Virus record (IMG/VR): IMGVR_UViG_3300028581_000244
Location: 1-23,893 of that record
Reading direction: 5' to 3' (one strand)
Length of the DNA stretch: 23,893 nt
From: a virus
This document shows positions 3 to 21,282 of this stretch, one piece after another (position 1 is the stretch's first letter; every line of letters starts with the position of its first letter). The position numbers and the translations under genes are program-made. The notes below the pieces were generated by a model. That model saw only the letters and a program-made list of their open reading frames with translations, was not told the DNA's origin and did not search any database.

Positions 3-2465
3 TTAGACTATGAGTTTAGACTAATGGCTCAATTACTTACGGATAATAGATTTGCCAATTCAATTGTTGATATTGTAGATGCTAATTACTTTAGTGACCC
101 ATATCTTAGAGTAATAGCTGCTGCCATAAAAGAAGCCAAAGAAAAAGATGATATTGTTCCTGATTTAGGAAGTGTTAAAATTAGACTGTTAGCCGATGTG
201 ACAGAGGATTTACAAAGAAAGTATATCCTAACACAGCTTAGCAAGGTTCAAGAGGCTAGTTCTTATGATGCTCTTAAAATACAAGACATCGCTATGAAGT
301 TTTGTAAACAACAAGAGTTGAAGAAATCCATCAAACAGATTCAAAAAATAATTGATATTGGTGACATTGAAAACTACGAACAATGTGAAACAATACTTAG
401 AAAAGCATTGGAGCATGGCGACAATAAGGATGACGGCATGGATGTTTTCGATAATATCAAAGATGTTTTGGTTGATGACTTTAGAAAACCAATAAGAACT
501 GGCATAAAAGGCTTGGATGAAGTAATGGATGGTGGCTTATCTAAAGGTGAATTGGCTGTAATATTGGCACCGTTTGGTGTCGGTAAAGCACAGCCATTAT
601 TTTCTAATATATTAACACCTAATGGTTGGGTAACTATGGGTGATATTAATTTAGGTGACTATGTTATTGGCAGGGACGGAAAACCAACCAAAGTTATTGG
701 TACATTCCCACAAGGAAAAAGACCTATATACGAAGTTAAATTTAACGATGGTACTAAAACATTATGTGATGCTGAGCATTTATGGTCTGTAAACACAATT
801 AATCAAAGAAATAGAAAAACAAAAAAAGATGGTAAACAAATTTATTTACAATCTGATAATTCATTTAAAGTTGTAAAAACTATTGATATGATTAATAGTG
901 TTAAAGTTTGGAATGGAAGACGATTGAATTATAAAATACCCAATGTATCACCAATCGAATTCATAAAAAAAGATTTGATTATTGACCCTTATTTATTAGG
1001 TGTTATATTAGGTGATGGGTGTATTACATCATCTAATCAGCCGAATTTTGTTACCAAAGATGAAGAAATAATTACTGAGGTTGCTAAAATTTATAACAAC
1101 TTATCAATTAAAGAACAAATTAGAGATATTGAAAAAGAAATTAATGGTGAATTAGTTTTAGTTAAACGCTATTTAAAAAAGGTTTCATTATTAGGGATTA
1201 AAGATTCTTTAATCGAATTAGACTTATACGGAACTAATTCTAAAACTAAGTTTATCCCACAAAACTACCTTTATTCTTCTATATCTGATAGAGTTAGCCT
1301 ATTACAAGGTTTAGTTGATACAGATGGGTATATTGATGAGCATAGAATAGAGATTTCAACAACATCTGAACAGTTATCTAAAGATATTAGAGAATTAGTT
1401 TTATCTTTAGGTGGTAGAGTTTCAATTTCTGAAAAGATTGGAAAATATGGTGATAATATTTGTAATAATTATTATCGTATTTCCTTTAGTTTCCCAGATA
1501 ACGGAATTATACCAAGTAGGTTAAGTAGAAAACTAAATAAATTTAAAAATAGAACTAAGTATTCTAATAATAAATTTATTAAATCAATCGAGTATTACGG
1601 TGAAGAAGAAGCTAAATGTATTATGGTGGAAAACCCAGAACATTTATATGTTACTGATGATTACATCGTCACCCACAACACGACCATGATGACCAAAATT
1701 GCTAACACAGCAATGAACGATGGTTACAGAGTTTTACAAATCTTCTTTGAAGATAACCCAAAGGTAATTCAAAGAAAACATATTTCTTGTTGGACTGGTA
1801 TTGACTTGAATAGCTTATCTTTACATAAAGACGAAATCACGTCTTTATGTGAACACAAGCAAAAAGAGTCAAAAGGTGGAAAAGGTAACTTAAAACTTAA
1901 AAAATTTTCTAGTGATGGGACAACCATACCTATTATAAGACAGTATATCAGGAAAAAAATTGCTGAAGGTTTTAGACCAGACATCGTTCTATTGGATTAT
2001 ATCGACTGTGTTCAACCATCAAGAAAATATGATGATGCGAATGTTGGTGAAGGTAGTGTTATGAGACAATTTGAAGCTATGTTAGGTGAATTAGATATTG
2101 CTGGTTGGACAGCGGTACAAGGAAACAGAAGTTCAATAAAGGCAAACGTAGTAGAAGCAGACCAAATGGGTGGTTCGATTAAAAAAGGTCAGATAGGTCA
2201 CTTTATTGTGTCAATCGCAAAAACTCTAGACCAAAAAGAAAATGGAACTGCAACAATGGCCATACTTAAATCACGTTTTGGTAAGGATGGTATTATCTTT
2301 GAAGATATAACCTTTGACAATGCTAGGATTCAGATAGATATGGGCCAAAGTAAAGGAGCAAGAACCCAAACTGAATACAAAAAAGATGTCGAAACTAACG
2401 ACCAAGCAAGGGTAAATGAAGTTTTAGCCAGTACAAAAAGAAAAGCGGTTATAAACGAAGAATAA
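3..2465 (+). CDS. Replicative DNA helicase (DnaB/T4 gp41-like) containing an intein; 5' end probably outside the window
   Basis: Hexameric helicase that would unwind phage DNA at the fork. The first ATG in the window is at 24, giving 813 residues (numbering used here). The frame is open to the left edge and reads LDYEFRL before that Met, which suits the helicase N-domain, so the true start is probably just upstream. After removal of the intein (residues 189-552) about 449 residues remain, a normal gp41/DnaB length. The N-terminal DnaB-N-like region is residues 1-140. Walker A is APFGVGK joined to TTMM after splicing, with Lys188 as the P-loop lysine. Walker B is LLDYID with Asp658. An AVQGNRSS stretch matches the H3 Gln region, and ILKSRFGKDG near the end matches the arginine-finger region. 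nrdB follows after 23 AT-rich bases. The helicase call is firm; whether it is closer to DnaB or gp41 is not decided. Confidence 0.93.
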   Translation, partial: LDYEFRLMAQLLTDNRFANSIVDIVDANYFSDPYLRVIAAAIKEAKEKDDIVPDLGSVKIRLLADVTEDLQRKYILTQLSKVQEASSYDALKIQDIAMKFCKQQELKKSIKQIQKIIDIGDIENYEQCETILRKALEHGDNKDDGMDVFDNIKDVLVDDFRKPIRTGIKGLDEVMDGGLSKGELAVILAPFGVGKAQPLFSNILTPNGWVTMGDINLGDYVIGRDGKPTKVIGTFPQGKRPIYEVKFNDGTKTLCDAEHLWSVNTINQRNRKTKKDGKQIYLQSDNSFKVVKTIDMINSVKVWNGRRLNYKIPNVSPIEFIKKDLIIDPYLLGVILGDGCITSSNQPNFVTKDEEIITEVAKIYNNLSIKEQIRDIEKEINGELVLVKRYLKKVSLLGIKDSLIELDLYGTNSKTKFIPQNYLYSSISDRVSLLQGLVDTDGYIDEHRIEISTTSEQLSKDIRELVLSLGGRVSISEKIGKYGDNICNNYYRISFSFPDNGIIPSRLSRKLNKFKNRTKYSNNKFIKSIEYYGEEEAKCIMVENPEHLYVTDDYIVTHNTTMMTKIANTAMNDGYRVLQIFFEDNPKVIQRKHISCWTGIDLNSLSLHKDEITSLCEHKQKESKGGKGNLKLKKFSSDGTTIPIIRQYIRKKIAEGFRPDIVLLDYIDCVQPSRKYDDANVGEGSVMRQFEAMLGELDIAGWTAVQGNRSSIKANVVEADQMGGSIKKGQIGHFIVSIAKTLDQKENGTATMAILKSRFGKDGIIFEDITFDNARIQIDMGQSKGARTQTEYKKDVETNDQARVNEVLASTKRKAVINEE
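588..1679 (+). mobile_element. Contiguous class 3-type intein with LAGLIDADG homing endonuclease, inserted in the helicase Walker A motif
   Basis: A 364-residue in-frame insertion splits the P-loop between Lys188 and Thr553. It starts AQPLFSNILTPNGW and ends DDYIVTHN before Thr+1, matching intein blocks A and G with terminal His-Asn. Residue 1 is Ala, so the usual N-to-S shift is impossible. By motif alignment the WCT residues of class 3 inteins are all present: Trp254 two residues after the block B His (EHLW), Cys532 in place of the block F Asp (KCIMVENPEH), and Thr550 just before His-Asn. Two dodecapeptide motifs, LLGVILGDG (about 325-333, Asp331) and LVDTDG (about 430-435, Asp434), mark a LAGLIDADG endonuclease that would cut intein-less helicase alleles. 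The intein is visibly more AT-rich and uses more TTA leucines than the surrounding helicase. Splicing activity is inferred. Confidence 0.92.
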
Positions 2466-2488: not shown

Positions 2489-3442
2489 ATGTATCTAAAA
2501 GATAAAACACTTAAAAAAAGGTATTCCATTTTCCCAATCATTCACAATGACTTGTGGCAAATGTATAAGAAAGCTGAATCACAAACTTGGGTTGCTGAAG
2601 AAACAGATTTGAGTAAGGATAAATTTGATGAGCTAAAAGATAATGAAAAAACTTACCTTAAAAACATTTTGGCTTTCTTTGCCATATCAGATGGGTTGGT
2701 TATTGATAATTTGGCCACAAACTTTCTTAATGAAGTTGAAATATTGGAAGCTCAATATTTTTATGGTCATCAAACGTTTATTGAACAAGTCCACGCAAAT
2801 GGATATTCTCTATTGATTGAAACGTTTATAAAAAATCTTCACGAAAAAGAAGAGCTGTTTAATTCAATGGAAAACAATCAAGCAGTGGCTAAAAAAGCTT
2901 CATGGGCTGAAAACTGGATAAACCATCCATCATTTGCTCATAGATTGGTAGCGTTTGCTTGTATTGAAGGTATCGCATTCTCTAGCGTATTTTCTGGGGT
3001 TTTCTGGTTTAGAAGCAGAAACAAAATGCCAGGTTTAGCTGCAATGAACGAATTAATTTTAAGGGATGAAACATTCCATTATGAATTTGCTATTAATTTA
3101 TATAACAACTATTTGAAAGATGACTATAAGTTGTCAACTGACGAGTTAAGAAAAGTTATATTGGGTTGTTATGAAATTGAAAAAGCTTTTGTTGAAGAAA
3201 GTATGCCAGATGGTTTACAAGGTATTACAAAACAAGACATGGTAAAATATGTCCAATATGTTACGGATATTGTGCTAAACGATTTTGGTTGCCAAAGAGA
3301 ATTTATGGTTAGCAATCCGTTAGAATATATGTCTAGAATTGGATTGTCTTCTAAAAATAACTTCTTTGAAAAGAGAGAAGGTGAATATACCAGAGTAGAC
3401 ATTCCAACAACTATTGATGGTATTTTTGATGAGGAATTTTAA
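2489..3442 (+). CDS. nrdB: Ribonucleoside-diphosphate reductase small (beta) subunit, class Ia
   Basis: Makes the tyrosyl radical that NrdA uses to reduce ribonucleotides to deoxyribonucleotides. At 317 residues it is a slightly short but complete R2. The di-iron ligands are all visible: Asp68, Glu99 and His102 (ExxH), Glu160, Glu194 and His197 (RDETFH). The radical Tyr106 follows in the ExxHxxxY pattern. Sequence around these sites (FFAISDGLV, EAQYFYGHQ, EQVHANGYSLLI) is closer to the eukaryote-type R2 also found in Bacteroidetes than to the E. coli type. The C-terminus, FDEEF, resembles the acidic/aromatic tail with which R2 docks onto R1. It lies between the helicase gene and nrdA, with only 5 bases before the nrdA ATG, so the two subunits are probably translated from one message. 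No disabling change was seen. Confidence 0.97.
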   Translation: MYLKDKTLKKRYSIFPIIHNDLWQMYKKAESQTWVAEETDLSKDKFDELKDNEKTYLKNILAFFAISDGLVIDNLATNFLNEVEILEAQYFYGHQTFIEQVHANGYSLLIETFIKNLHEKEELFNSMENNQAVAKKASWAENWINHPSFAHRLVAFACIEGIAFSSVFSGVFWFRSRNKMPGLAAMNELILRDETFHYEFAINLYNNYLKDDYKLSTDELRKVILGCYEIEKAFVEESMPDGLQGITKQDMVKYVQYVTDIVLNDFGCQREFMVSNPLEYMSRIGLSSKNNFFEKREGEYTRVDIPTTIDGIFDEEF

Positions 3443-3447
3443 ACAAA

Positions 3448-4929
3448 ATGGGAATGAGAATAGTTAAACGAGACAAAACGACACAAGCGTTTATGCCAAA
3501 CAAAATCCTAACTAGGATTAAAACACAATCAACTGGACTAAATGTTGATGCCGATTCTTTATTTTTGGAAGTTATGCCGCTTATAAGCGATAACATTACA
3601 ACAACAGAAATAGATGAAATCATCGCTTTTAAAGCTGCTGATAAAATCATTCAGCATCCAGACTACTCCTTATTAGGTGGTAGAATACTATTAAGTAGAC
3701 AATCAAAATTGGTAGGTAAAGAACTACAACCAATTGATTTGACTTATGACTTTTTTGCTGCGACAACATTTCTTTCGAAGTATTCAAAAAGAGATAACAA
3801 CAAGGCACCAATTGAACTTCCTTCATGCATGTATGAGCGTGTTGCTTATCATTTGCACGATGATGATGAAGAAGCTAGAAAAGAACTTTTAAAAGAATTA
3901 AAAAGCAAAAGAGCCAACTTTGCAACACCAACATATACAAACGCTGGTGTGGACAAAAGAAATGGTATGGTTAGTTGTAATCTAACACATTTGGAAGAAG
4001 ATTCTTTTGAAGGTATTGAAGCTACTTTAACAAAGATAGCGTCTGCATCAAAAGAGGGTTCTGGTATTGGTTTACTTATAGACCCACTTAGAAGCAAAGA
4101 CAGCTTGGTTCATTCATTCCAAGGCAACGCTGGAGGTGTTGTAAGACTTGCAGATATGGTTCAATCAAAAATGCGTTTCTACAAACAAGGCTCACGTTCT
4201 GGAAGTTGCGCTCTTTATTTATCAGTTTGGCATAGAGACATTTTTGATTTCTTAGACCTTACTTTACCAATTGGTGATGAACAATTAAGAACACGTGATT
4301 TATTTACTGCTGTTGTTATAAACGACTTGTTTATGCAAAAGCTTGAAAAAAGTGAAGATTGGTATTTGTTCTGTCCAAATGATATTAATAAAGCTGGTTT
4401 AACACCACTGCATCTTCTTTGGGGTGAAGAATTTGAAACAGAGTATCAAAAAGCGGTTGATTTGGGAATTGGTAAAAAGGTGAATCCAAAAGAAATATTT
4501 GACGCCATAATTAAAGCACAAGTTGAAAGTGGCAGACCGTATGTTATGTTTAAAGACAATGCGAACAAAAGAAATATGCAATCCAATATAGGCCCTATTT
4601 GTCAATCCAACTTGTGTTGTTTAAATGGTGAATCAATTATAACAATCATTAATGAAAACGGTGGTATTGAAAAAATAACTATGGAAGAAGTAGTTAAACT
4701 TTATGAAAAACATAAAAATATTTTAGTTTTAAGTCAAGATAATACTTTTCAACCAATATTAGGTGCTATAAAAACTAAAGATAATGCTGAAGTACTTGAA
4801 ATTATTGATGAAGAAAAAAATGTTAGGATTATTTGTACACCAGACCATAGGATATTCACTAAAAATAGAGGTTATGTAATGGCTTGTGATTTACTAGAGG
4901 ATGATGAGTTAGATACAAATTTTAATTAA
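3448..4929 (+). CDS. nrdA: Ribonucleotide reductase large subunit, N-terminal part fused to an N-intein fragment
   Basis: First piece of a fractured class Ia R1 gene, 493 residues. Residues 3-90 form an ATP-cone (IVKRDKTTQAF...KIL). The R1 barrel follows, with redox Cys177 in MVSCNL (counterpart of E. coli Cys225) and the active-site run QSNLC ending at Cys390. This is the NxCxE thiyl-radical cysteine (E. coli Cys439), with Asn388 matching Asn437. From Cys391 the protein changes into an N-intein that ends at a TAA stop. On its own this chain lacks half the barrel and must be joined to the product of 6211-7299. The start is ATG 3448, with ATG 3454 as an equally reasonable alternative. In Aeromonas phage Aeh1 an endonuclease insertion also divides nrdA, but there the halves associate without splicing; here intein motifs point to trans-splicing. 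Confidence 0.95.
   Translation: MGMRIVKRDKTTQAFMPNKILTRIKTQSTGLNVDADSLFLEVMPLISDNITTTEIDEIIAFKAADKIIQHPDYSLLGGRILLSRQSKLVGKELQPIDLTYDFFAATTFLSKYSKRDNNKAPIELPSCMYERVAYHLHDDDEEARKELLKELKSKRANFATPTYTNAGVDKRNGMVSCNLTHLEEDSFEGIEATLTKIASASKEGSGIGLLIDPLRSKDSLVHSFQGNAGGVVRLADMVQSKMRFYKQGSRSGSCALYLSVWHRDIFDFLDLTLPIGDEQLRTRDLFTAVVINDLFMQKLEKSEDWYLFCPNDINKAGLTPLHLLWGEEFETEYQKAVDLGIGKKVNPKEIFDAIIKAQVESGRPYVMFKDNANKRNMQSNIGPICQSNLCCLNGESIITIINENGGIEKITMEEVVKLYEKHKNILVLSQDNTFQPILGAIKTKDNAEVLEIIDEEKNVRIICTPDHRIFTKNRGYVMACDLLEDDELDTNFN
4618..4926 (+). mobile_element. N-terminal half of a split (class 1) intein in NrdA
   Basis: The 103 C-terminal residues of the first NrdA piece (391-493) have N-intein features: Cys1 in CLNGESIITI (block A) and a TxxH block B motif in ICTPDHRIFTKNRGYV. 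The fragment ends at a stop after DDELDTNFN with no endonuclease domain. Length and sequence resemble the N-halves of naturally split inteins such as NrdJ-1, recalled from memory. It should pair with the C-half at 6211-6309. Confidence 0.93.
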
Positions 4930-4937
4930 TAAAAAAA

Positions 4938-4982
4938 AAATATACAGTACATAGTATAAAGTACACTATGTACTGTATATTT
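4938..4982 (+). promoter_or_regulatory. Long perfect inverted repeat (hairpin) in front of the homing endonuclease gene
   Basis: An 18-base arm (4938-4955, core ATATACAGTACATAGT) is the exact reverse complement of 4965-4982, with a 9-base loop. It starts 8 bases after the nrdA-N stop, is preceded by a run of ten A at 4931-4940, and ends 6 bases before the likely endonuclease ATG at 4989. It could limit endonuclease translation by structuring the initiation region, as RNA hairpins do for I-TevI in T4. It could also weakly terminate transcription; the downstream T tract is poor on the + strand, while the A run would be a T run on the other strand. Which role applies is not decided by sequence. 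Confidence 0.75.
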
Positions 4983-4988
4983 ATTAAT

Positions 4989-6188
4989 ATGAGATATTAT
5001 ATTTACATTTTATTAGATGATAGAGTAATGGGTGATTATAGTAATAATTATTCTGAAATAAATTACAAACCTTTTTATATAGGTAAAGGTGATTATAACG
5101 CTAAAAATAATAGAAAACGACATTTAACACATTATATTGATGTATTAAAAGATAATCGCAGTAGTAAAATAAACCCACATAAAACTAATACGATTAAAAA
5201 ATTAATTGGATTAGGTTTCAAACCTAACTTTAAGGTTATATTTGAAACAGATAATGAAGATGAAGCTTTTAAAGTTGAGAAAGAATTAATTGGTTATTAT
5301 GGTCGATTTACTGAAGGTGGTTTATTAACTAATATTGTTATAGGTGGAACTGGTGGTGATACTTTTAATAATAATCCTAAAAAAGAAGAAATAAGGGAAA
5401 AACATAGTGAAAATACTAAAGGTAGTAAAAACCCTATGTATGGTAGACCAATAGAAATTAATCCATCTTATTTAGCTAAAATTAATGGAGTTCATTGGAA
5501 TAAAGGTAAGAAATTTACTAAAGAGCGTATAGATAATATGAAAGAAAATTTTAAATCTAGAGTTAAACGTTTAATAGTTATGATTGATTCTAAAACATTA
5601 GAAGAAATAGATATTTTAAATATTAATGATATACTTAATAAATATGAATTTAAAACTAAATCATTAATATACCGATGTATTAAATATGGTGGTACATATA
5701 AAGGCTATTATTTTAGATACAATGATAGTGAATTAGTCTATAGTAAAACTAAACGGTCAGATTATAAAAAACCTACTGATGATTCATCCAGAGGGTTTAA
5801 AACAACTAAAAATGGTATTATTAGAATTTCTAAATTAGTTTATTACAAAAAAGATATTGATAGTAATATAGAATTAGTTTTCAATAATGTATTTGAAGCT
5901 AGTGAACAAATCGGTTTAAACCCAACTGTAATCAGAAGAAAATGTAAAAATAACAACACTTTTATTGATATTTTTAGATGGGAGAATGAAGAATACACAT
6001 TTGATATTAAAAAAGGTAACAATCAACGAAAAGTGAGAAGGATTGATAATAACGGTGATATTATCGAGTTTGATTCATTAAAATCAGCTGCTGAATATAT
6101 AGATGGTAAAATAACATCTGTATTAGCAGTATGTAAAGGTAGAAATAAAACTTATAAAGGTTTTAAATTTGAATATATAAATAATTAA
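4989..6188 (+). CDS. Free-standing GIY-YIG homing endonuclease with NUMOD/IENR-type DNA-binding modules
   Basis: 399 residues from ATG 4989. An in-frame ATG at 4968 adds 7 residues but lies inside the hairpin arm and before the conserved YYIYIL, so 4989 is preferred. The N-terminal nuclease domain (about 1-110) shows YYIYILLD and KPFYIGKG (the GIY and YIG halves), basic RKRH at 42-45, and EKELIGYYGR with probable catalytic Glu97. A NUMOD3-like stretch follows (GSKNPMYGRP), then probable NUMOD1/IENR1-like modules, the last reading RRIDNNGDIIEF...SAAEYI...GFKFEY at the C-terminus. The gene sits between the two halves of a split intein in nrdA and probably cuts uninterrupted nrdA, thereby spreading the whole insertion. 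It is strongly AT-rich (9 G/C in the 60 bases 5581-5640, against 18 in 6841-6900 of nrdA-C), suggesting recent arrival. The target site is not known. Confidence 0.93.
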   Translation: MRYYIYILLDDRVMGDYSNNYSEINYKPFYIGKGDYNAKNNRKRHLTHYIDVLKDNRSSKINPHKTNTIKKLIGLGFKPNFKVIFETDNEDEAFKVEKELIGYYGRFTEGGLLTNIVIGGTGGDTFNNNPKKEEIREKHSENTKGSKNPMYGRPIEINPSYLAKINGVHWNKGKKFTKERIDNMKENFKSRVKRLIVMIDSKTLEEIDILNINDILNKYEFKTKSLIYRCIKYGGTYKGYYFRYNDSELVYSKTKRSDYKKPTDDSSRGFKTTKNGIIRISKLVYYKKDIDSNIELVFNNVFEASEQIGLNPTVIRRKCKNNNTFIDIFRWENEEYTFDIKKGNNQRKVRRIDNNGDIIEFDSLKSAAEYIDGKITSVLAVCKGRNKTYKGFKFEYINN

Positions 6189-6210
6189 TAATTAATAAAA
6201 AATAAATAAT

Positions 6211-6309
6211 ATGATTAAAATTAATAAATTAGAAAAAACTATGGATGTGTATGACATTCAAGTTGAGAATACTAACAATTTTTATGCTAATAATATATTA
6301 GTTCATAAT
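6211..6309 (+). mobile_element. C-terminal half of a split (class 1) intein in NrdA
   Basis: 33 residues beginning MIKINKLEK, with block F VYDIQVENTNNFY and block G NNILVHN, immediately before Cys+1 of the extein. Terminal His-Asn, the block F Asp (DVYD) and Cys+1 are all as expected for a canonical class 1 intein. The length of about 35 residues is typical of naturally split C-inteins. Stop-to-start distance from the N-half (4930-6210) is occupied entirely by the hairpin and endonuclease gene. Confidence 0.93.
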
Positions 6310-7299
6310 TGTGAGATTTTTCAAGCTTCAAAACCAAAATACACACCTCAATGTACTTTGGCATCTGTAAACTTAGCTGAACACAATGGACTTAAATCAA
6401 TTGACAAAACAACAAGGGTTTTGGTTAGAGGTTTAAATAAAGTTATTGATAAAAATAAATGGAGTGATGATTGGAGCGAAGCAGCTGGTTTGGACCAAAG
6501 AGCTTTAGCAATCGGTGTTGCTGGTTTAGCTGATTTCTTTGCAAAAAAGAAGATTTCGTTTGAAAGCGAAGAAGCTAAGAAATGGAACAACGACATTTTT
6601 GAAACAATGTATAAAGCTGCTGTTGAAGAGTCGATGAAAATAGCTGAAGAAAAAGGACAAAACTATCCAGCTTGGGAAGGAAGTTTATATTCTGTTGGAG
6701 AAACTTATATTGAAGGTTGGTCACCAAAACCAGCTGGAGAACCAATACCTATGTACAACAGTCTTCTTCTCGGTCTTATGCCAACAGCTTCATCAGCAAT
6801 TCTTTTGGGTTCATTTGAGTCGTTTGAGCCAGTTACTGCTAATTTGTTTACAAGACGTGTTGGTCAAGGTGAGTTTTTGATTGTTAACAAATATCTTGTA
6901 AACGAATTGATTGAACATGAGTTATGGGATTCAGAAATGATTGACAAAGTTATTAAAAACAAAGGTAGTATTCAAAATATTGTTGATATACCAGAAGATA
7001 TTCGTTTCAGATACAAAGATGTTTGGGAGATACCACAAAGAGTTTTATTAGACTTGGCCATCATTAGAAACAAATATGTTGACCAATCACAGTCATTGAA
7101 CGTATATCATGCTGATGCAAAATATGGGAAAATAGCAAGTGCTTTGATGTATGCTTGGAAAGGTGGGTTAAAAACAGGTGTTTACTACACTAGGACAAAG
7201 TCAAAGTTGGAAACAAACACAAAATTAGCCACACAACAAGTAAATGTTGCCAAGAAACCAAAAGATAGTCAGTTTGAGTGTTTTGGTTGTTCAGCTTAA
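6211..7299 (+). CDS. nrdA: Ribonucleotide reductase large subunit, C-terminal part preceded by a C-intein fragment
   Basis: Second piece of the fractured R1, 362 residues. Residues 1-33 are the C-intein; the extein begins at Cys34 (CEIFQ). Joined to the first piece this gives NLCCEI, restoring the NxCxE active site with Glu35 as the E. coli Glu441 counterpart. Cys48 in PQCTLASVNL is the second redox cysteine (E. coli Cys462). Tyr325-Tyr326 (GVYYTRT) are the radical-transfer tyrosines, and Cys357/Cys360 in the CFGCSA tail are the re-reduction pair. The exteins total 719 residues, short but complete for R1. The piece has its own ATG after a 22-base AT-rich leader behind the endonuclease stop, so it is translated separately. 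An intrinsic terminator follows 20 bases after the stop. Confidence 0.95.
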   Translation: MIKINKLEKTMDVYDIQVENTNNFYANNILVHNCEIFQASKPKYTPQCTLASVNLAEHNGLKSIDKTTRVLVRGLNKVIDKNKWSDDWSEAAGLDQRALAIGVAGLADFFAKKKISFESEEAKKWNNDIFETMYKAAVEESMKIAEEKGQNYPAWEGSLYSVGETYIEGWSPKPAGEPIPMYNSLLLGLMPTASSAILLGSFESFEPVTANLFTRRVGQGEFLIVNKYLVNELIEHELWDSEMIDKVIKNKGSIQNIVDIPEDIRFRYKDVWEIPQRVLLDLAIIRNKYVDQSQSLNVYHADAKYGKIASALMYAWKGGLKTGVYYTRTKSKLETNTKLATQQVNVAKKPKDSQFECFGCSA

Positions 7300-10026: not shown

Positions 10027-13000
10027 ATGTCTGAATCAATAAGAATAAGAACCAAGCCAAATGGAGGTGACAAATATGTCAAAGTTAAAATAGACCAAGA
10101 CATAGATTTTGTTGAAATCCTTTCATTAAAGATAACTCAGGATGAAATTTATCAAAATTTTTGTTCTGATTATGGTGTTGTTGCTGGTAGAGTAATTATA
10201 AACAGTGGATTTGGGGTTCCTAACGCAAAGGTTAGCATCTTTATACCTATTGACGAAATAGATAAACAAGATGTTAAAATATCTGGCCTTTATCCGTATG
10301 ATACTGTTACAGACAAAGACAGTGACGGAATAAGATACAATTTATTACCTAGATATTCAGTAACTGAAAATGATTGCTTTACACCAGTTGGTACATTTCC
10401 TAGCAAAAGAGAGGTTCTAGATAATTCAGACATTTTAGAGGTATATTGCAAATATTATAAATTTACAACCACAACAAATTATGCTGGTGACTTTATGATT
10501 TTTGGTGTTCCTATAGGAACATACACACTCCATGTTGATGCAGACGTTTCTGATATTGGAATAGCATCACAAAGACCATATGATTTAATAAGACAAGGCA
10601 ATTCACCTAAATTTTTTGACAGCCCAACAAAATTTAAAGCTGATACTAATTTAGACAGATTAATTCAGATAAAATCATCCAATGTAGGTGTAAACGTGCA
10701 GCCTTTTTGGGGTGATATGGACAATTGTGAAATTGGTATTACAAGAGTAGATGTTGATTTGAATTATACGTTACAACCTTGTGCTATTTTTATGGGTAGC
10801 ATTTACGGTGACCAAGATAAAAATTCTGTCAACAAAAGGTGTAGACCTAGAAAAAAGTTAGGCGAACTGTGCGAACAAGTTGCAGGGGCAGGTAGCGTAG
10901 AAATGATTAGAAAGAATATCGATGACGAAATTGAGGAATTTTCAGTAGATGGTGGTAGAGTTATTGATGATGATGGAACATGGGCTTTTCAAGTTCCAAT
11001 GAATTTGGACTACATGATTACCGATGAGACTGGGACACTAGTTTTGTCAGAAGACCCTAATAAAGGGGTTCCTACTAGAGCTAATGTAAGATTTAGAATA
11101 GGAATGGACGTGACTGGTGGTGAAGGTAGACTTAGAACTAGAGCGAAATATTTAGTCCCAAACAACCCACAAAACAGTAATCAGATTGATTATAATTTTG
11201 ATGAAAATACAAAGCCAACAAGTTTTAAAGACATATATTGGAATAAAATATATACAGTATCAAACTTTATTAGTAGATATCAAAAAAGTTTAACAGGTGC
11301 TTCAAACAGAAATATAACAGCAATGAAAGATGTTGATGCTTGTGCTGGTGATAAAAATCCGTTTCCTTATAATAGAGTTAATACAACTATAAATCCAATA
11401 TTTTTTATAATATGTTTAATTATTAAAATCATTGGTTTTATTGTTGGTTTGATTAATTTTATAATAATACCCCTCATAAACGTTATAGTAAGCATTATAA
11501 GGGGTATTGTTAAATTTATTAATAAACTTGGGGCCGATTTGAACGAACCAGATTTTGTATCATGTGTAACAATTCTTTGTCCAGCTGATGATGGTTCATT
11601 GTTTGCACCAGGATGCCGTAAAGACAGTAAAGGTTTTGATGCAGCTACACCCCCAATTAATTATTCTAGCAACTTACCAACTGATTTAGCTGGTTTAGAT
11701 GATTGTTTGGCTTTTCAGATGGCTCAAGAGTTAAATCTTTTCCAATTTGATTTTTATAACGATTGGGTAACTGGAACGTTATTTGGTTATTTGTTAAAAT
11801 ATAAAAAGAGAAGAAGAGGCAAAGAAAGATTTTGTGAATTTGATTGTGAAGATTTTACTGGAGACCCTAATTATTCTGGTGTCGATGGGAATAACAATGG
11901 TATACCAGATAACCCTTGTAGAAACAATAAACAATTGGACACTTGTTACAGTTGTAATAGTAACAATTGTCAGAAAGACTATCGTGATAACGGACTTATT
12001 AGAGAAGGTTTAATTAAAAAATACAAAGACGAATTTTATTATGCTGCAACAACCCATAATGCAGCGTTTAAGTTATTTGCTACTGATATTGTTTGTTTGG
12101 GTTCGGTGTTCTCATGTGATTGGCAAGGTTATCCAAAGTTACAACCATCATTAGTCGGTTCAAGTTATAAGCTACCGCCAGAAATTGAAGAACTTGATGA
12201 TGACAATGTTACAGTATTAGCGACTGGTCAAGTTAAAATTGGAAACGGTGCTCCAGGATTATTTTTTGATATTAATTGTGCTGGTTTACATGTTGATGCA
12301 AGACAATGTTTAAATTTAAGACATATGTGTGAAGTAGAAGTTGACTTGGACGAAGCATTATTTAACCCACAAACTGGTGCGATTATGACACCAGCGAATG
12401 GTAATTTAGGTAGCAATGATATTGACGATACGTTTGGTAAACAATTTAGAGATGCTTATCTTTATATAAACAGCGCAACAACATTCCCTGTTATTTATTC
12501 ACAACCAGCAATCATCAATAGTGATTTTAATTTAGCTAACGATGCAATTTATAACTTTTCTAGTGGTTTTCCAATTAACGGACAAGATTATGCTAACTTT
12601 AGGGGTTATGCAAACGACAATAGTTTTGTTCAACCAAAACATTCATTTTTCATGTATTTTGGAACTCAACCAGGGCGTTCATCTTTGGATAAAATGAATC
12701 AAAGATATTTTACACCATGTGTTGTAATAGTTGATACTGATATGGTAATAGATGCAACAGTTACACCAACAACAACTACAGGTGGGTTTGACGGACAAAT
12801 AACATTTACAATCGTTGGCAGTCAAGGCCCTTATACATACACAATAACTGGGCCGAATAATTACACAACTAGCGGAACAATAACAGTAACACCAGCAACT
12901 GATACAGCAACTGGTTTAGAACAAGGTACATACACAATAAGTGTGTTTGATGCTGGTGGAAACCCAGTGACACAAACAGTGATTGTAGGTGGACCACCAT

Positions 13001-14031
13001 CATTCTATTGTAGTGCAAGTGTGACAAAAAATAACACGTCAACTTCAGTATCAGATGGTATAATAACTTTAAATGTAGGCGGTGGTTCAGTACCATACGT
13101 GTATACGTTATTAGATGAAAACGGTGCACCTGTACCTAACTATACTAACGAACCAACTAATGGCGCAGTTGAGATGACTGGATTAGCCACAGCGGTAGAC
13201 CAAGGCTATACAGTTACTGTAACTGATTCGGCTGGGTCTGTTTGTACAACAACTGGTTTGACTGTTTCTGGACCTACAACAATAAATATTACAGCCGTTC
13301 CAACAAATACAACATGTTATGTTGGTAGCAATGATGGTGCTTTAGCGATAACAGTAACTGGAGCACAATTACCATATTTTGTAACAACATCTGGAACAAC
13401 AACTAATAACGCTGGATTTTTTAGCGGTTCTCTTAATCTAACGAATTTAGCCGCAGGTGATTATTTGGTAACGGTTCAAGACCCTAATGGGATTTCAACA
13501 CAAACATTTACAGTTGGGTCTAATGGAGCTCAATTAACATTAACAGCTGCACAACCAGCTGAAATAGCTAAACAATGTAGTCCAAATAATTATAGGATAT
13601 ATTTTAGAATACCAAATGGGTTATCTGTTGGTGCAACAGCTTATATTGAGTATAGAGTAGACAATTCAACAACATGGAATTATTTAAACACCAATCCAAC
13701 ATGGACTAGTGCTCTAATGTCATTTGACGTACCTAAAACAGCGTTTGTAAATAACATTACGTTTAGATTTAGTGACACTTCTACACACGATTGTCATAGT
13801 AACATATTAACTTACTATGCTGCTCAAATGCCATTACCAATCTCTCCATTAGCTTCGAGCTCAAATGTAAGCGCACCAAACAAAACAATTACTGTAACTG
13901 GTGGTATAGGACCTTACACCGTATTGGTAAATGGTATAACAGCAACGCTTAACAATAATAACCAAATAACAGTAAATCAAAGTGCTACAGTGACTATAAC
14001 TGATAGTGTTGGTTGTCAAGTATCGGCTTAA
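10027..14031 (+). CDS. Large virion/tail protein with carboxypeptidase-regulatory-like domain, internal hydrophobic segment and SprB-like repeats
   Basis: 1334 residues, probably a baseplate- or fibre-associated protein. Residues about 50-175 resemble a CarboxypepD-regulatory/Cna-B-like beta-sandwich (GVVAGRVIINS...GVPNAKVSIF...GTYTLHVDADV). A second region to about 440 is mixed beta. Residues 458-498 are almost wholly hydrophobic (NPIFFIICLIIKIIGFIVGL onward), which is odd for a virion protein and could be a membrane-active or buried helical segment. A cysteine-rich part follows (FCEFDCEDF, CYSCNSNNC). The C-terminal third carries three SprB-like repeats (about 909-1169) and a final half repeat (1285-1334). 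Such repeats are known from flavobacterial surface adhesins and suggest contact with the host surface. Neighbouring starts are 4-5 bases away on each side, consistent with one operon. The exact place in the particle is not known. Confidence 0.8.
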   Translation: MSESIRIRTKPNGGDKYVKVKIDQDIDFVEILSLKITQDEIYQNFCSDYGVVAGRVIINSGFGVPNAKVSIFIPIDEIDKQDVKISGLYPYDTVTDKDSDGIRYNLLPRYSVTENDCFTPVGTFPSKREVLDNSDILEVYCKYYKFTTTTNYAGDFMIFGVPIGTYTLHVDADVSDIGIASQRPYDLIRQGNSPKFFDSPTKFKADTNLDRLIQIKSSNVGVNVQPFWGDMDNCEIGITRVDVDLNYTLQPCAIFMGSIYGDQDKNSVNKRCRPRKKLGELCEQVAGAGSVEMIRKNIDDEIEEFSVDGGRVIDDDGTWAFQVPMNLDYMITDETGTLVLSEDPNKGVPTRANVRFRIGMDVTGGEGRLRTRAKYLVPNNPQNSNQIDYNFDENTKPTSFKDIYWNKIYTVSNFISRYQKSLTGASNRNITAMKDVDACAGDKNPFPYNRVNTTINPIFFIICLIIKIIGFIVGLINFIIIPLINVIVSIIRGIVKFINKLGADLNEPDFVSCVTILCPADDGSLFAPGCRKDSKGFDAATPPINYSSNLPTDLAGLDDCLAFQMAQELNLFQFDFYNDWVTGTLFGYLLKYKKRRRGKERFCEFDCEDFTGDPNYSGVDGNNNGIPDNPCRNNKQLDTCYSCNSNNCQKDYRDNGLIREGLIKKYKDEFYYAATTHNAAFKLFATDIVCLGSVFSCDWQGYPKLQPSLVGSSYKLPPEIEELDDDNVTVLATGQVKIGNGAPGLFFDINCAGLHVDARQCLNLRHMCEVEVDLDEALFNPQTGAIMTPANGNLGSNDIDDTFGKQFRDAYLYINSATTFPVIYSQPAIINSDFNLANDAIYNFSSGFPINGQDYANFRGYANDNSFVQPKHSFFMYFGTQPGRSSLDKMNQRYFTPCVVIVDTDMVIDATVTPTTTTGGFDGQITFTIVGSQGPYTYTITGPNNYTTSGTITVTPATDTATGLEQGTYTISVFDAGGNPVTQTVIVGGPPSFYCSASVTKNNTSTSVSDGIITLNVGGGSVPYVYTLLDENGAPVPNYTNEPTNGAVEMTGLATAVDQGYTVTVTDSAGSVCTTTGLTVSGPTTINITAVPTNTTCYVGSNDGALAITVTGAQLPYFVTTSGTTTNNAGFFSGSLNLTNLAAGDYLVTVQDPNGISTQTFTVGSNGAQLTLTAAQPAEIAKQCSPNNYRIYFRIPNGLSVGATAYIEYRVDNSTTWNYLNTNPTWTSALMSFDVPKTAFVNNITFRFSDTSTHDCHSNILTYYAAQMPLPISPLASSSNVSAPNKTITVTGGIGPYTVLVNGITATLNNNNQITVNQSATVTITDSVGCQVSA
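11466..11508 (+). repeat. Inverted repeat inside the coding sequence of the hydrophobic segment
   Basis: AATACCCCTCATAA (11466-11479) pairs with TTATAAGGGGTATT (11495-11508), 13 of 14 positions, around a 15-base loop. It contains a C4/G4 block that stands out in this AT-rich gene and lies in the codons of the membrane-like segment (residues 480-494). It lacks a T tract, so it is not a standard terminator. It may be an mRNA structure slowing translation, or chance. Confidence 0.6.
12751..13533 (+). repeat. Three degenerate SprB-like protein repeats
   Basis: Three units of roughly 80-90 residues share the order xDGxITxxVxGxxxPYxYxx ... GLxxGxYxVTVxDxxG. They open near VTPTTTTGGFDGQITF (residue 909), VTKNNTSTSVSDGIITL (999) and NITAVPTNTTCYVGSNDGAL (1086). 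The pattern matches SprB repeats of Bacteroidetes adhesins as recalled; no nucleotide identity between units is obvious, so they are old duplications or imported as a block. A partial fourth unit ends the protein at 13879-14028. Confidence 0.8.
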
Positions 14032-14035
14032 TAGT

Positions 14036-15841
14036 ATGAGTACAGAAAGAAAACAAATTAGATTATCGGTAGAGAATTCAAAGGAATCTTTGAATACCGA
14101 CAGTTATATTAAGATAAACATTGATGATAGTGAAAGGTTACTACCACCTGGAGTTATTACAAAAATTGTTGATGCTGCTGAACGATTTGATTTTGAAAGA
14201 CAAAGAAGCACATATTATAGAATACTTGGAACAATCAATATATTGGCATCAAATCCACTGTTTAATTTGGATGATTCTGGTGCTTATTTGGATTTATACA
14301 CTTGGAAAGGATTTAACTACGTAAATCAAAATGGTGATTATCGTTTTACAGACCCAGTATATCCAAATGTTATTAAAAAATATTTAAAAGAAAATAATGG
14401 TTGGTTTGGTTATTATGACCCAGACATAACAAAAGCTGGTTTTTGTAATTATTTTGATATGGAACCTAAAAGAGAAAGGTTTTCATTTATTCAAGACATA
14501 GACCCATACCACAATCCAACAGGAGAACCAGTAAAAAATTGGGAATTAACAATAACATATCCAGCGACTTCAGATTCTGGTCACACAATGGTAAATGGTG
14601 GTCTGTTGTTGGTAGATATTCAACCAGCGGATGTTTCAACCAGACAAATGAGTGCAATATCAGCTGGTTGTTTACACAATTTGGCTGTGGGTGATTTAGT
14701 TAGAATCACAGGTTCAAACGGTTATGATGGAGACCATTTGGTAGTAAGAACAGGTTTAGATAATGGTGATTTAAAAGGCTATTATTTTGTTATAGACGTA
14801 CCGACATCACCTTTCAATACTATAGACTTTGACTCTAGAATGAAAAAAGTGGTAAACGATAAAGAGTCTGTTTACTATTTTAGAAAATTTAGAAAAATAA
14901 AAACAAGAAATACTCCAGTTATTGAGACAGATGACTATGAAACATACAGAGTTGCTTTTAGTGAAAATTCTTATCAAGATGATATAACTCAATTTGTTTT
15001 TAATGAAGACATTGACGTATCTGATTTGGTTGATAATTTAGGTAGACCACTTACAGAATTATATTTGACAGTGATAAAAACAGACAGCAATAATTTGTTT
15101 ACACAAGTTAAATCTGGTATTGAGTTGCCATTTATTGCACAGTTAAATACTAGCAGTAGTAGCAACCCATATTTGTTAGATATACCTGTTATAAATAAAA
15201 TACATAATGGTGGTTCATTGCCTTTTCCTAGCCATAAAGAATTAGAATTCAATGTAACAATAAACAACAATAATAATATTACAAACAATAATGATTATTA
15301 TGGTGATTTGGTAGAATACAATGAAGCTGAATTAAGAGAATATATTTTAGCTCACGTTTCTCATAGATTTAATACTCGTAATAGAGAGACCAGCCCATCA
15401 ATGACGTATACAACAATTGAAGCAAATCCTTTTACGACACCAAACACACCAGCAACTACTGTTACCACAAATTTAGGGCCTAGACAAGAAGGTTATTTCT
15501 ATAAAGCCCATCATATGATTAGAATAAAACAATTTTCAACCTATATAGAACAAAGTGATGCTAACACAATTGGTATACCTAGTTATGCTGTAGCTTTGGG
15601 TGACGGCACATATTTATGGAGGGATGTTTTGGATATTGGATTTAACCAAGTTGATGGAACGGCTTTAAATTATCCATTTTTAAATGGTTGTCACTACAGA
15701 TACGACAATTATTGTTTTTATGTAAGAAGACAAGACCCATTTGATAATTGGGATTTATACTACTCAACCTATCCAAGCGACCCTGTAGGGGAAAGCATTA
15801 CTGATAAATTTACAATTAACTCGGCTGAAGATGTTTGTTAA
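14036..15841 (+). CDS. Virion structural protein, unknown family (baseplate cluster)
   Basis: 601 residues from ATG 14036. An in-frame ATG at 14006 overlaps the previous gene by 26 bases; 14036, 5 bases after the previous stop, is preferred and gives MSTERKQIRLSVEN. The family is not recognised. Visible features are an early charged segment with DAAERFDFERQRSTYYRI, beta-rich sequence in the middle (VGDLVRITGSNGYDGDHLVV is a small-barrel-like stretch), an asparagine run near residue 415 (NNNNNITNNND) that is probably a loop or linker, and an aromatic-rich C-terminus (YYSTYPSDP). No signal peptide, membrane helix or catalytic motif is seen. Its position between large tail proteins and its end overlapping the next gene by 11 bases support a coordinately expressed baseplate or tail component. 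Confidence 0.7.
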   Translation: MSTERKQIRLSVENSKESLNTDSYIKINIDDSERLLPPGVITKIVDAAERFDFERQRSTYYRILGTINILASNPLFNLDDSGAYLDLYTWKGFNYVNQNGDYRFTDPVYPNVIKKYLKENNGWFGYYDPDITKAGFCNYFDMEPKRERFSFIQDIDPYHNPTGEPVKNWELTITYPATSDSGHTMVNGGLLLVDIQPADVSTRQMSAISAGCLHNLAVGDLVRITGSNGYDGDHLVVRTGLDNGDLKGYYFVIDVPTSPFNTIDFDSRMKKVVNDKESVYYFRKFRKIKTRNTPVIETDDYETYRVAFSENSYQDDITQFVFNEDIDVSDLVDNLGRPLTELYLTVIKTDSNNLFTQVKSGIELPFIAQLNTSSSSNPYLLDIPVINKIHNGGSLPFPSHKELEFNVTINNNNNITNNNDYYGDLVEYNEAELREYILAHVSHRFNTRNRETSPSMTYTTIEANPFTTPNTPATTVTTNLGPRQEGYFYKAHHMIRIKQFSTYIEQSDANTIGIPSYAVALGDGTYLWRDVLDIGFNQVDGTALNYPFLNGCHYRYDNYCFYVRRQDPFDNWDLYYSTYPSDPVGESITDKFTINSAEDVC

Positions 15842-16670
15842 CAAATTTCAAATAAACCTAGCAACACTAGCTAGCGGTACAACAGCAACGACAATAAATA
15901 TTCCGATAAATATGGAATATCAAGTTGTTGACAATGCTGAGTTGGTTGACCGTGTGTTTGTTGACGTTGAAACTGAAAAAAACATTAACCCAATTATTGA
16001 CTACGAAAAAACAAGGTTTGTTCCAATTGATAAAACATCACTACCAATAGATAGAATAATATATAGAGTAACATTAATAGCTGGTAATACATATGGTGCA
16101 ATAGGTTTTACAGATGATGATATAAAATTTAGAAAAGAAAATTTTAGACAAAGTTTTTTAAATTTGAATTTTTATGATTCTGACAATCCTTTATCACAAA
16201 ATCTAGTTACAAATATTACACTTTATTCTAGAATAACACAATCTGATTTGGTACCCATGGGGTCTCCAATTGGTGTTATCGGCCAACCAAAACCAGCAAA
16301 CCAAATACCAATAACATACACATTAGAAAGCCCTCTTTTAAATCCTAGAGGTTTTTCTGAAGGATATTTTTTGTATGACTATAAAGATGAATTGCTAATA
16401 GGCGGACCACCTAAATACTTGTACATGAGAGCCAGCTTTAAAAATGCAAAAGATGGCAGAACTACAAACATGATGGTCAAACAAGCAGCACAACCTATTG
16501 ATACGCTTATACACGAATTGTACACTAGATTTATATTATCTAGGACAACAACTGGGTATTTCTATACTATAGATGATTCCTATCAAGGAAACATACCAGC
16601 ACCATCAAATAATGTAACTTACCTAGGTAATAAGATTTTTGTTAATTTATATCAAATAAATGCTCTATAA
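15831..16670 (+). CDS. Virion structural protein, unknown family (baseplate cluster)
   Basis: 279 residues. The start overlaps the end of the preceding gene by 11 bases and its stop shares one base with the next start (TAATG), so three successive genes are likely translationally coupled and needed in set proportions. The sequence alternates beta-strand-like segments (TTINIPINMEYQVV, RIIYRVTLIAG) and has a compact motif FRQSFLNLNFYDSDNP, followed by QNLVTNITLYSRI. The C-terminal third includes a helix-like HELYTRFILSRTTTGYFY. No family is recognised and no enzymatic motif is visible. By size and position it could stand where T4-like phages have gp8, a baseplate wedge protein of 334 residues, but there is no sequence reason to claim that. 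Confidence 0.68.
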   Translation: MFVNKFQINLATLASGTTATTINIPINMEYQVVDNAELVDRVFVDVETEKNINPIIDYEKTRFVPIDKTSLPIDRIIYRVTLIAGNTYGAIGFTDDDIKFRKENFRQSFLNLNFYDSDNPLSQNLVTNITLYSRITQSDLVPMGSPIGVIGQPKPANQIPITYTLESPLLNPRGFSEGYFLYDYKDELLIGGPPKYLYMRASFKNAKDGRTTNMMVKQAAQPIDTLIHELYTRFILSRTTTGYFYTIDDSYQGNIPAPSNNVTYLGNKIFVNLYQINAL

Positions 16671-17551
16671 TGGAATTAGTTAAACGTCAAATATCGTTAG
16701 AAAACAGCACAAATAGGGGTGATTTTAGCTCATCATGGGGTGCCATGACCGCTAGTACGTTTTACGTTAATATTTTCTTGTCTCAAGATATTGATGATAT
16801 GGGTCTTTTTACTGATATACAATATTTTTCAAATGTTCCAGTAGCTCAATCACCAGTAGATTATTCCATTTTAATTAATAAAATGATTCAGAGTGGTTAT
16901 ACTTCACCTTTTATGTTTGGTATTTTACCACCAGCATTTACAGGTATAACTGAGACAGACCTTAAAACACTTCGTTTTACAGGGAATACGGAATCATCAT
17001 ATTATGCATATTTTAATATACCAATAACTGGTTTCACAGATAGCAAAATAGAAGACGTGTATTCTTATAGTCAGTTAGACAGATTAAAAGTTGGTTTGGA
17101 TATTGAAGCTGAGACATACATAAACTATATTGGAAATACAATAAACGGTGTTAGTAGAGTTTCATCTGATGGAGAGCCAGTTGTTTATGTAGTAGATACA
17201 GCGAATAATGCATTATTGGGTACAAATAACCAAAGCAGTGGTATATTATATAGAGACTATTCTGGTATAACTAGAACTGTTACATATGAAGATGGGGTGA
17301 CTGAAGTAATCCCAGTAACTCAATTTAGGTTTAGGGGTGAGGGTAAAAACCAAACAACAGTCTCATTATCCGCCATTACCAAAGAAGAATATTTGTTTGG
17401 AATAATTTCTACACCAGAAGTTCAAAGTGATGTATTTATAGATAGAGGTATAACTTCAGTTATGGATATGCACTTAAGACTTTCTGAAATAAAAAATATG
17501 GGAGAATTAGCCAGATATGGTAACGGATTTTACACAATTAGAAGAACATAA
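16670..17551 (+). CDS. Virion structural protein, unknown family (baseplate cluster)
   Basis: 293 residues, starting at the TAATG junction with the previous gene. It opens MELVKRQISLENSTNRGDF, then has WGAMTASTFYVNIFLSQDIDDMGLF and, near the middle, a run of acidic, aromatic and beta-like segments. The last 60 residues (KEEYLFGIISTPEVQ, DRGITSVMDMHLRLSEI, MGELARYGNGFYTI) look like a helix-plus-strand closing domain. No signal peptide, membrane helix, cysteine cluster or catalytic motif is present. No family is recognised. Its tight coupling to the two preceding genes suggests it belongs to the same subassembly. A 49-base AT-rich gap separates it from the next gene. Confidence 0.68.
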   Translation: MELVKRQISLENSTNRGDFSSSWGAMTASTFYVNIFLSQDIDDMGLFTDIQYFSNVPVAQSPVDYSILINKMIQSGYTSPFMFGILPPAFTGITETDLKTLRFTGNTESSYYAYFNIPITGFTDSKIEDVYSYSQLDRLKVGLDIEAETYINYIGNTINGVSRVSSDGEPVVYVVDTANNALLGTNNQSSGILYRDYSGITRTVTYEDGVTEVIPVTQFRFRGEGKNQTTVSLSAITKEEYLFGIISTPEVQSDVFIDRGITSVMDMHLRLSEIKNMGELARYGNGFYTIRRT

Positions 17552-17600
17552 AATACACTTTGAAAAAATCATAGTTATATTATAAAAAAAAAAGAATAAA

Positions 17601-18524: not shown

Positions 18525-18530
18525 TAGAAA

Positions 18531-21245: not shown

Positions 21246-21282
21246 TAATAAAATGAATATTTATCTCTAAATAAAAACAATA

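What the first reader, a model, noticed from the sequence alone, without database searches (positions are those of the whole stretch)
3448..7299. Fractured nrdA: split intein with a GIY-YIG homing endonuclease gene nested between the halves
Seen: NrdA-N ends in a 103-residue N-intein with Cys1 and TPDH. NrdA-C begins with a 33-residue C-intein ending VHN before Cys+1. The 1281 bases between stop and start hold only a hairpin and a complete GIY-YIG gene. Known: split inteins with free-standing endonuclease genes ('fractured genes') were described in environmental phage sequences, mostly with Vsr-like endonucleases as I recall, and Aeromonas phage Aeh1 has nrdA divided by the endonuclease MobE without an intein. 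Inferred: the intein and endonuclease form a collaborative homing unit in which the endonuclease supplies mobility and the intein repairs the damage at protein level. A GIY-YIG member in this position may be a little-described combination.
Basis: partly seen in the sequence, partly recalled or inferred. Interest (0 to 1): 0.9.

Follow-up and report, generated by a model that had tools for sequence, protein, structure and literature searches.

The report
Mobile split intein with endonuclease gene
A phage gene for making DNA building blocks is cut in two by a self-removing protein splicer that carries a DNA-cutting enzyme gene between its halves, and near-identical copies sitting in otherwise different phages show that the whole package jumps as one unit.

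Summary
nrdA is broken at its catalytic cysteine (Cys439 by E. coli numbering). A class-1-type split intein (103 + 33 residues) flanks a hairpin and a complete GIY-YIG endonuclease gene; precise joining would give 719 residues.

Mobility is supported by natural alleles. The 1.69-kb cassette (4618-6309) is 99.3-99.4% identical to copies in two other phages whose flanking nrdA is only 77-79% identical. A nearly identical nrdA (97-98% aa over the C half) exists without it. The nrdA tree rejects common descent of the three carriers (AU p = 4e-10). Donor-like sequence extends only about 20 nt past the 3' junction. That tract carries the +1 Cys that splicing needs: 8/8 occupied alleles have it, 0/68 empty alleles (Ile or Ala).

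In related phages the same site holds empty alleles, split inteins without endonuclease, split inteins with a Vsr-like/PD-(D/E)XK-like ORF, or cis inteins; cultured phages have HNH versions.

The arrangement is known: "fractured genes" (Dassa 2009, from memory) and a GIY-YIG example in nrdHF (AceL NrdHF, PMC7891396). This is a new member of a known kind. The added value is natural evidence for unit mobility and co-conversion of the splicing nucleophile. Splicing and cleavage remain inferred.

The parts
2489..3442 (+). nrdB, class I ribonucleotide reductase small subunit (upstream neighbour)
   Evidence: Pfam Ribonuc_red_sm E 3e-80
3448..4617 (+). NrdA N-extein (390 aa), ends at the catalytic-site motif SNLC
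   Evidence: Pfam ATP-cone, Ribonuc_red_lgN, lgC 1-213; alignment with intein-less alleles
4618..4929 (+). N-intein (103 aa, Cys1, TPDH block B) plus stop
   Evidence: Pfam Intein_splicing, TIGR01445; absent from 68 intein-less alleles
4938..4982 (+). Hairpin, 18-21 bp stem, just upstream of the endonuclease start codon
   Evidence: Folding z -6.1 in the window, -3.3 to -8.2 in relatives; 95% of stem cells paired against at most 67% when slid
4989..6188 (+). GIY-YIG homing endonuclease gene: GIY-YIG domain, NUMOD3-like linker, NUMOD-like DNA-binding modules
   Evidence: Pfam LEM-3_GIY-YIG 1e-6, I-HmuI_NUMOD-like 2e-6; catalytic-motif residues invariant in 19 relatives; AF2/Foldseek matches to I-HmuI and GIY-YIG nucleases
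6211..6309 (+). C-intein (33 aa, ends VHN)
   Evidence: TIGR01443 E 8e-7, above cut-off; strong purifying selection
6310..6331 (+). Donor-derived 3' co-conversion tract carrying the +1 Cys codon (TGT; Ile ATT/ATC/ATA or Ala GCA in empty alleles)
6310..7299 (+). NrdA C-extein (329 aa), starts CEIFQAS, plus stop
   Evidence: Pfam Ribonuc_red_lgC 205-523
4618..6309 (+). Complete mobile cassette: N-intein, hairpin, GIY-YIG gene, C-intein
   Evidence: 99.3-99.4% identical in L083 and L084 with 77-79% identical flanks

Best explanation
This is a mobile fractured-gene cassette in a T4-like phage nrdA. The two nrdA halves are translated separately. The N- and C-intein associate and trans-splice, joining SNLC to CEIF and restoring a 719-residue NrdA (inferred from intact motifs, selection and similarity to the split intein NrdJ-1). 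The GIY-YIG enzyme between the halves recognises intein-less nrdA at the Cys439 codon and cuts it (inferred). Double-strand-break repair then copies the whole cassette into the recipient (inferred). Transfer of the cassette as one unit, together with about 20 nt of 3' flank that rewrites the +1 codon from Ile to Cys, is shown by natural alleles. A hairpin just before the endonuclease start probably limits its translation (inferred). The endonuclease can decay or be absent while the split intein persists (shown).
For: Intact splicing motifs and RNR domains split exactly at the junction. Best solved relative by sequence is NrdJ-1, PDB 8ubs, E 1e-21. Cassette 99.3-99.4% identical to L083 and L084 while flanking nrdA is 77-79% identical. 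Closest nrdA alleles, L002/L003 (97-98% aa in the C half), are empty. Six GIY-carrying alleles need six changes on the nrdA tree, five of them forced by starred branches; a WIN+L083+L084 clade is rejected, AU p 4e-10. 3' footprint of 0-22 nt: 57/176 differences from the nearest empty allele against 17/184 in the next 23 nt; +1 Cys 8/8 against 0/68. dN/dS below 1 for both intein halves (0.13-0.31 and 0.03-0.14 for window comparisons) and for the GIY-YIG gene (0.15-0.38). Relatives at 37% identity or more in the examined contexts sit between split-intein halves of nrdA.
Against: No biochemical evidence of trans-splicing or of cleavage here. Split inteins without any endonuclease (L010, L166) show that the intein can exist, and perhaps move, without this gene. 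Extein recombination could inflate the tree conflict, though it cannot easily explain sharp identity boundaries at the cassette edges.
Confidence: 0.88

Rival explanations
1. The GIY-YIG gene is an independent element that homes into, or is lost from, a pre-existing split intein; it targets the gap between the intein halves, not empty nrdA.
For: HEG-less split inteins exist, and L010's intein is nearly the same as HEG-bearing L009's (intN dS 0.11 against extein dS 1.34). L209-type alleles carry an internally deleted endonuclease beside intact intein halves.
Against: In the three most recent transfers the identity boundaries coincide with the outer ends of the intein, not with the endonuclease gene. 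The 3' conversion tract lies in the extein.
Confidence: 0.1
2. The intein is dead and the two NrdA halves assemble non-covalently, as reported for the genes-in-pieces NrdA of Aeromonas phage Aeh1.
For: A split NrdA can work without splicing in Aeh1 (PMC3653736).
Against: All splicing motifs are intact; purifying selection acts on both intein halves; Cys+1 is present in every occupied allele and in no empty one.
Confidence: 0.05
3. The intervening segment is a group I intron or other RNA-level element inside an intein gene.
For: An endonuclease with NUMOD-like modules is typical of phage introns.
Against: No Rfam match above the gathering score in the whole window and no intron-like match at a permissive threshold. 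HEG-less alleles reduce the gap to about 15 nt with the stop and start kept, too short for an intron.
Confidence: 0.01
4. Assembly artefact or a decaying pseudogene.
For: Metagenomic contig.
Against: Separate contig 100% identical over 12.8 kb; the same order in many diverged contigs; open frames under selection.
Confidence: 0.01

Closest known systems
Fractured genes with split inteins and free-standing endonucleases (Dassa et al. 2009, NAR 37:2560; not held, known from memory and from citations)
   Same: A DNA-metabolism gene broken by a split intein, endonuclease gene between the halves, phage origin, RNR genes among the hosts
   Different: As recalled, about half of those loci carry Vsr-like endonucleases; here it is GIY-YIG, and population data show the unit moving
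AceL NrdHF split intein (PMC7891396)
   Same: Phage RNR gene, fractured-gene organisation, intervening GIY-YIG putative homing endonuclease
   Different: nrdHF (beta subunit), class 3 intein with Ala1, 98+48 residues; here nrdA, Cys1, 103+33 residues
NrdJ-1 split intein (PDB 8ubs)
   Same: Best match among solved inteins, E 1e-21 over nearly the whole intein
   Different: Different gene (nrdJ, by its name) and insertion context
MobE in nrdA of Aeromonas phage Aeh1 (PMC2988022, PMC3653736)
   Same: nrdA divided by an endonuclease gene, hairpin at the endonuclease start
   Different: No intein involved in Aeh1 as far as I know (PMC3653736 reports that the split gene is functional without a self-splicing intron); HNH endonuclease
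Yersinia phage vB_YenM_TG1 nrdA (KP202158)
   Same: Cultured phage with nrdA split by intein halves and an endonuclease gene in between
   Different: HNH endonuclease; insertion one codon upstream (SNL|C)

Membership tests
Fractured gene (Dassa type) | Conserved enzyme gene broken in two by split-intein halves | tested here: met
Fractured gene (Dassa type) | Free-standing endonuclease ORF between the halves | tested here: met
   ORF 4989-6188 with its own start and stop, Pfam GIY-YIG
Fractured gene (Dassa type) | Protein trans-splicing restores the enzyme | not testable with these tools
   Motifs intact; no experiment
Class 1 split intein | Cys1, TxxH block B, terminal His-Asn, Cys/Ser/Thr at +1 | tested here: met
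   Cys codon at 4618, TPDH, VHN, Cys+1
Class 3 split intein (AceL NrdHF type) | No nucleophile at position 1, internal branch-point Cys | tested here: not met
   Cys at position 1 in the window and its three aligned relatives
GIY-YIG homing endonuclease | GIY-YIG domain with conserved catalytic residues plus DNA-binding modules | tested here: met
   Pfam PF22945 and PF22083; Y5, Y29, H44, E96, N114 invariant in 19 relatives; fold match to I-HmuI and GIY-YIG nucleases, low pTM
GIY-YIG homing endonuclease | Site-specific cleavage of the cassette-less allele | not testable with these tools
   Only predicted from natural transfer footprints
Mobile homing element | Presence/absence at one site with element identity far above flank identity | tested here: met
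Vsr-like homing endonuclease family of fractured genes | PD-(D/E)XK/Vsr-like nuclease between intein halves | tested here: not met
   The window has GIY-YIG; a TnsA-like/PD-(D/E)XK-like match appears in L013 and L014 instead, below the gathering score
Group I intron | Catalytic intron RNA | tested here: not met
   No Rfam hit

The most novel reading that the evidence does not exclude
The split intein acts as a neutral landing platform at the RNR radical cysteine whose endonuclease can be swapped or lost. Homing routinely overwrites the +1 Ile with Cys by co-converting about 20 nt, so this intein does not need a pre-existing splicing nucleophile at its insertion site. The endonuclease is predicted to cut within about 25 bp downstream of that site.
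Probability: 0.5. Interest if true: 0.65.

Novelty: new member of a known kind. Interest (0 to 1): 0.5.

Why it matters
The held literature describes fractured genes and presumes that they are mobile. Here a natural allelic series shows the split intein and its endonuclease gene travelling as one unit between diverged phages, with sharp boundaries. It also shows an intein bringing along the splicing nucleophile that the recipient gene lacks. Co-conversion of a flanking residue needed for splicing has been reported as rare for an archaeal MCM intein (PMC10643990), so this is a clean case with testable predictions. The cassettes are also a source of natural split inteins.

Tried and rejected
Group I intron or other RNA element: no Rfam hit. 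Hairpin as a terminator for nrdA: the + strand lacks a T tail and only the - strand fits the terminator pattern. Hairpin covariation as proof of function: inconclusive, covariation is not above column shuffles with 6 sequences, although stem pairing persists. A cultured phage with this GIY-YIG gene inside a split intein: none found; the INPHARED hits are about 30-38% identical over part of the protein and the two inspected (Bacillus phage Mater, Erwinia phage pEa_SNUABM_22) lie outside nrdA as far as annotation shows. Bacterial genomes: one distant hit, not in an intein. The first AlphaFold model with 8 sequences was weak; 19 sequences raised pLDDT to 75.8, but pTM stayed 0.30, so only the domains are usable. 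Dassa et al. 2009 could not be read.

Full report
OBSERVATION. The described structure is present at the stated coordinates. nrdA-N (3448-4929) encodes a 390-residue extein ending SNLC, followed by a 103-residue N-intein with Cys1 and TPDH. nrdA-C (6211-7299) begins with a 33-residue C-intein ending VHN, then Cys+1 and 329 residues. The 1281 nt between them hold a hairpin and a GIY-YIG ORF. The exteins cover the RNR barrel profile with only a few positions of overlap (1-213 and 205-523), and both intein halves match intein models. By E. coli NrdA numbering (own knowledge), SNLC is the Cys439 motif, so the break lies directly after the radical cysteine. The endonuclease probably starts at ATG 4989: L083, 99% identical, lacks the upstream ATG.

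NOT AN ARTEFACT. The window is a complete 23.9-kb IMG/VR record. A second contig, L081, is identical over 12,806 nt. The same gene order recurs in many diverged contigs. Four related contigs of 171-362 kb, two of which carry the GIY-YIG cassette, encode a T4-type portal, so the carriers are large T4-like phages.

ALLELIC SERIES. Eighty relatives of nrdA-C were fetched. Most have no insertion and read SNLC-IEVF or similar. Occupied alleles fall into four kinds: split intein plus GIY-YIG (window, L004/L005, L009, and later L083, L084, L170); split intein with only about 15 nt between the halves and no endonuclease (L010, L166); a different split intein one codon upstream (SNL|C) with a TnsA-like/PD-(D/E)XK-like, presumably Vsr-like, ORF (L013-L015; Pfam TnsA-like 1e-4 to 2e-5, below the gathering score); and a cis intein of LAGLIDADG-type length at SNL|C (L076). 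In cultured phages of other lineages the SNL|C site holds a split intein with an HNH gene (Yersinia phage TG1) and a cis intein with an HNH-like insert (Salmonella phage pertopsoe).

MOBILITY OF THE UNIT. The cassette 4618-6309 has 12 differences in 1685 nt to L083 and 10 in 1683 to L084, while the flanking nrdA is 77-79% identical; L083 and L084 flanks are 77% identical to each other. In contrast, L002 and L003, whose C halves are 97-98% identical to the window in protein, are empty. On the extein tree the six GIY alleles need six changes, at least five forced by starred branches, and holding window, L083 and L084 together is rejected (AU p 3.8e-10). Recombination among exteins could add to the conflict, but the sharp edges at the intein ends argue for movement of the cassette itself.

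CO-CONVERSION. The first 22 nt after the junction differ from the nearest empty allele at 57/176 positions over eight occupied alleles, against 17/184 in the next 23 nt (Fisher 5e-8; alleles are not fully independent; three recent transfers only: 18/66 against 4/69, p 9e-4). The 5' side shows a weaker, less donor-like signal. The tract holds the +1 codon: TGT or TGC in 8/8 occupied alleles, never Cys, Ser or Thr in 68 empty alleles (p 5e-11). Since the C-terminal splicing step needs Cys, Ser or Thr at +1 (established intein chemistry), the cassette must bring this codon with it. A flanking Pro that must be converted to Ser for splicing was reported for the haloarchaeal MCM intein, as a rare event (PMC10643990). 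From the one-sided footprint I predict a cleavage site within about 25 bp 3' of the insertion site; this is inference.

ENDONUCLEASE. Pfam finds a LEM-3-like GIY-YIG domain and an I-HmuI-like NUMOD. Y5, Y29, H44, E96 and N114 are invariant among 19 relatives. The AF2 model (mean pLDDT 75.8, pTM 0.30; domains only) matches I-HmuI and, weakly, GIY-YIG nucleases including UvrC. All contexts examined with a relative at 37% identity or more are nrdA genes with split inteins, at SNLC|C (L183-L194, L196, L208, L209) or SNL|C (L088-L090, L199, L202-L207). Of the relatives at 35% and below, those examined lie elsewhere. L209-type alleles keep residues 1-86 and 344-382 only, a recent internal deletion next to intact intein halves. 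L010 shares a nearly identical intein with GIY-bearing L009 (dS 0.11 against 1.34 in the extein) but has no endonuclease. Decay of the endonuclease is shown for L209; for L010 and L166 loss and gain cannot be told apart.

CONSTRAINT AND HAIRPIN. For comparisons with the window, dN/dS is 0.13-0.31 for the N-intein, 0.03-0.14 for the C-intein and 0.15-0.38 for the GIY-YIG gene. Synonymous sites are near saturation in several pairs, so values are rough. A strong hairpin precedes the GIY-YIG start in all six close carriers and, with unrelated sequence, in L088 and L089. In L183-L193 no such hairpin is obvious by eye. Hairpins that limit translation of phage homing endonucleases, including mobE in phage Aeh1, are documented (PMC2988022), so this role is plausible here but untested.

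COMPARISON WITH THE LITERATURE. The arrangement belongs to the fractured genes of Dassa et al. 2009, which could not be read here; from memory, they described 26 loci, with Vsr-like endonucleases in about half. A split class 3 intein in phage nrdHF with an intervening GIY-YIG gene is published (PMC7891396). The GIY-YIG combination is therefore not new. The nrdA cases and the natural evidence for unit mobility were not found in the held papers, which is a limited library.

VERDICT. A functional-looking, recently mobile split-intein/GIY-YIG cassette in nrdA; a new member of a known kind with unusually clean population evidence.

Noticed in passing
window 24-2465: DnaB-like helicase with a large cis intein at the Walker A motif (GVGK|AQPL...VTHN|TT): Ala1, LAGLIDADG domain, and W, C, T residues that look like a class 3 intein. 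Relatives L165 and L170 lack it.
   Followed up: partly
L083 5213-8074, L084 5213-8079, L088, L090, L166 4328-5892: A second split intein at MPTAS|S (or equivalent) in nrdA, with a nuclease-like ORF between the halves in L083 and L084 and no ORF in L166; L166 thus has three inteins in one nrdA.
   Followed up: partly
L006 3574-6987, L084 1211-3940, L166 2369-4312: Cis intein at a third nrdA site, GMIS|CNLTHL, probably the Cys225 equivalent, so inteins sit at two catalytic cysteines of the same enzyme.
   Followed up: partly
L174 (Campylobacter phage CPt10) and L175 (CC_R7): nrdA annotated as a disrupted pseudogene in CPt10; in CC_R7 the same locus reads as a split intein (MTNLC|CLAGDT...VHN|CEI) plus a second cis mini-intein, and the two ORFs between the halves have no evident endonuclease motif.
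   Followed up: partly
L208-L211: Endonuclease reduced by an internal deletion to residues 1-86 plus 344-382 while both intein halves stay intact.
   Followed up: yes
L089 6001-6750: A GIY-YIG-like ORF whose first residues repeat the start of the downstream baseplate gene (MANGKYININYP), as if inserted at its 5' end.
   Followed up: no
L088 80-1344 and L090 430-1364: Split intein in the DnaB-like helicase (GNR|C...HN|SSLS in L088; C-part and a nuclease-like ORF seen in L090), resembling gp41-type fractured genes.
   Followed up: no
window 10027-23892: Several large proteins downstream of the baseplate genes (1334, about 601, 279, 293, 307, 904 and over 870 aa); those tested have no PHROGs match.
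   Followed up: no
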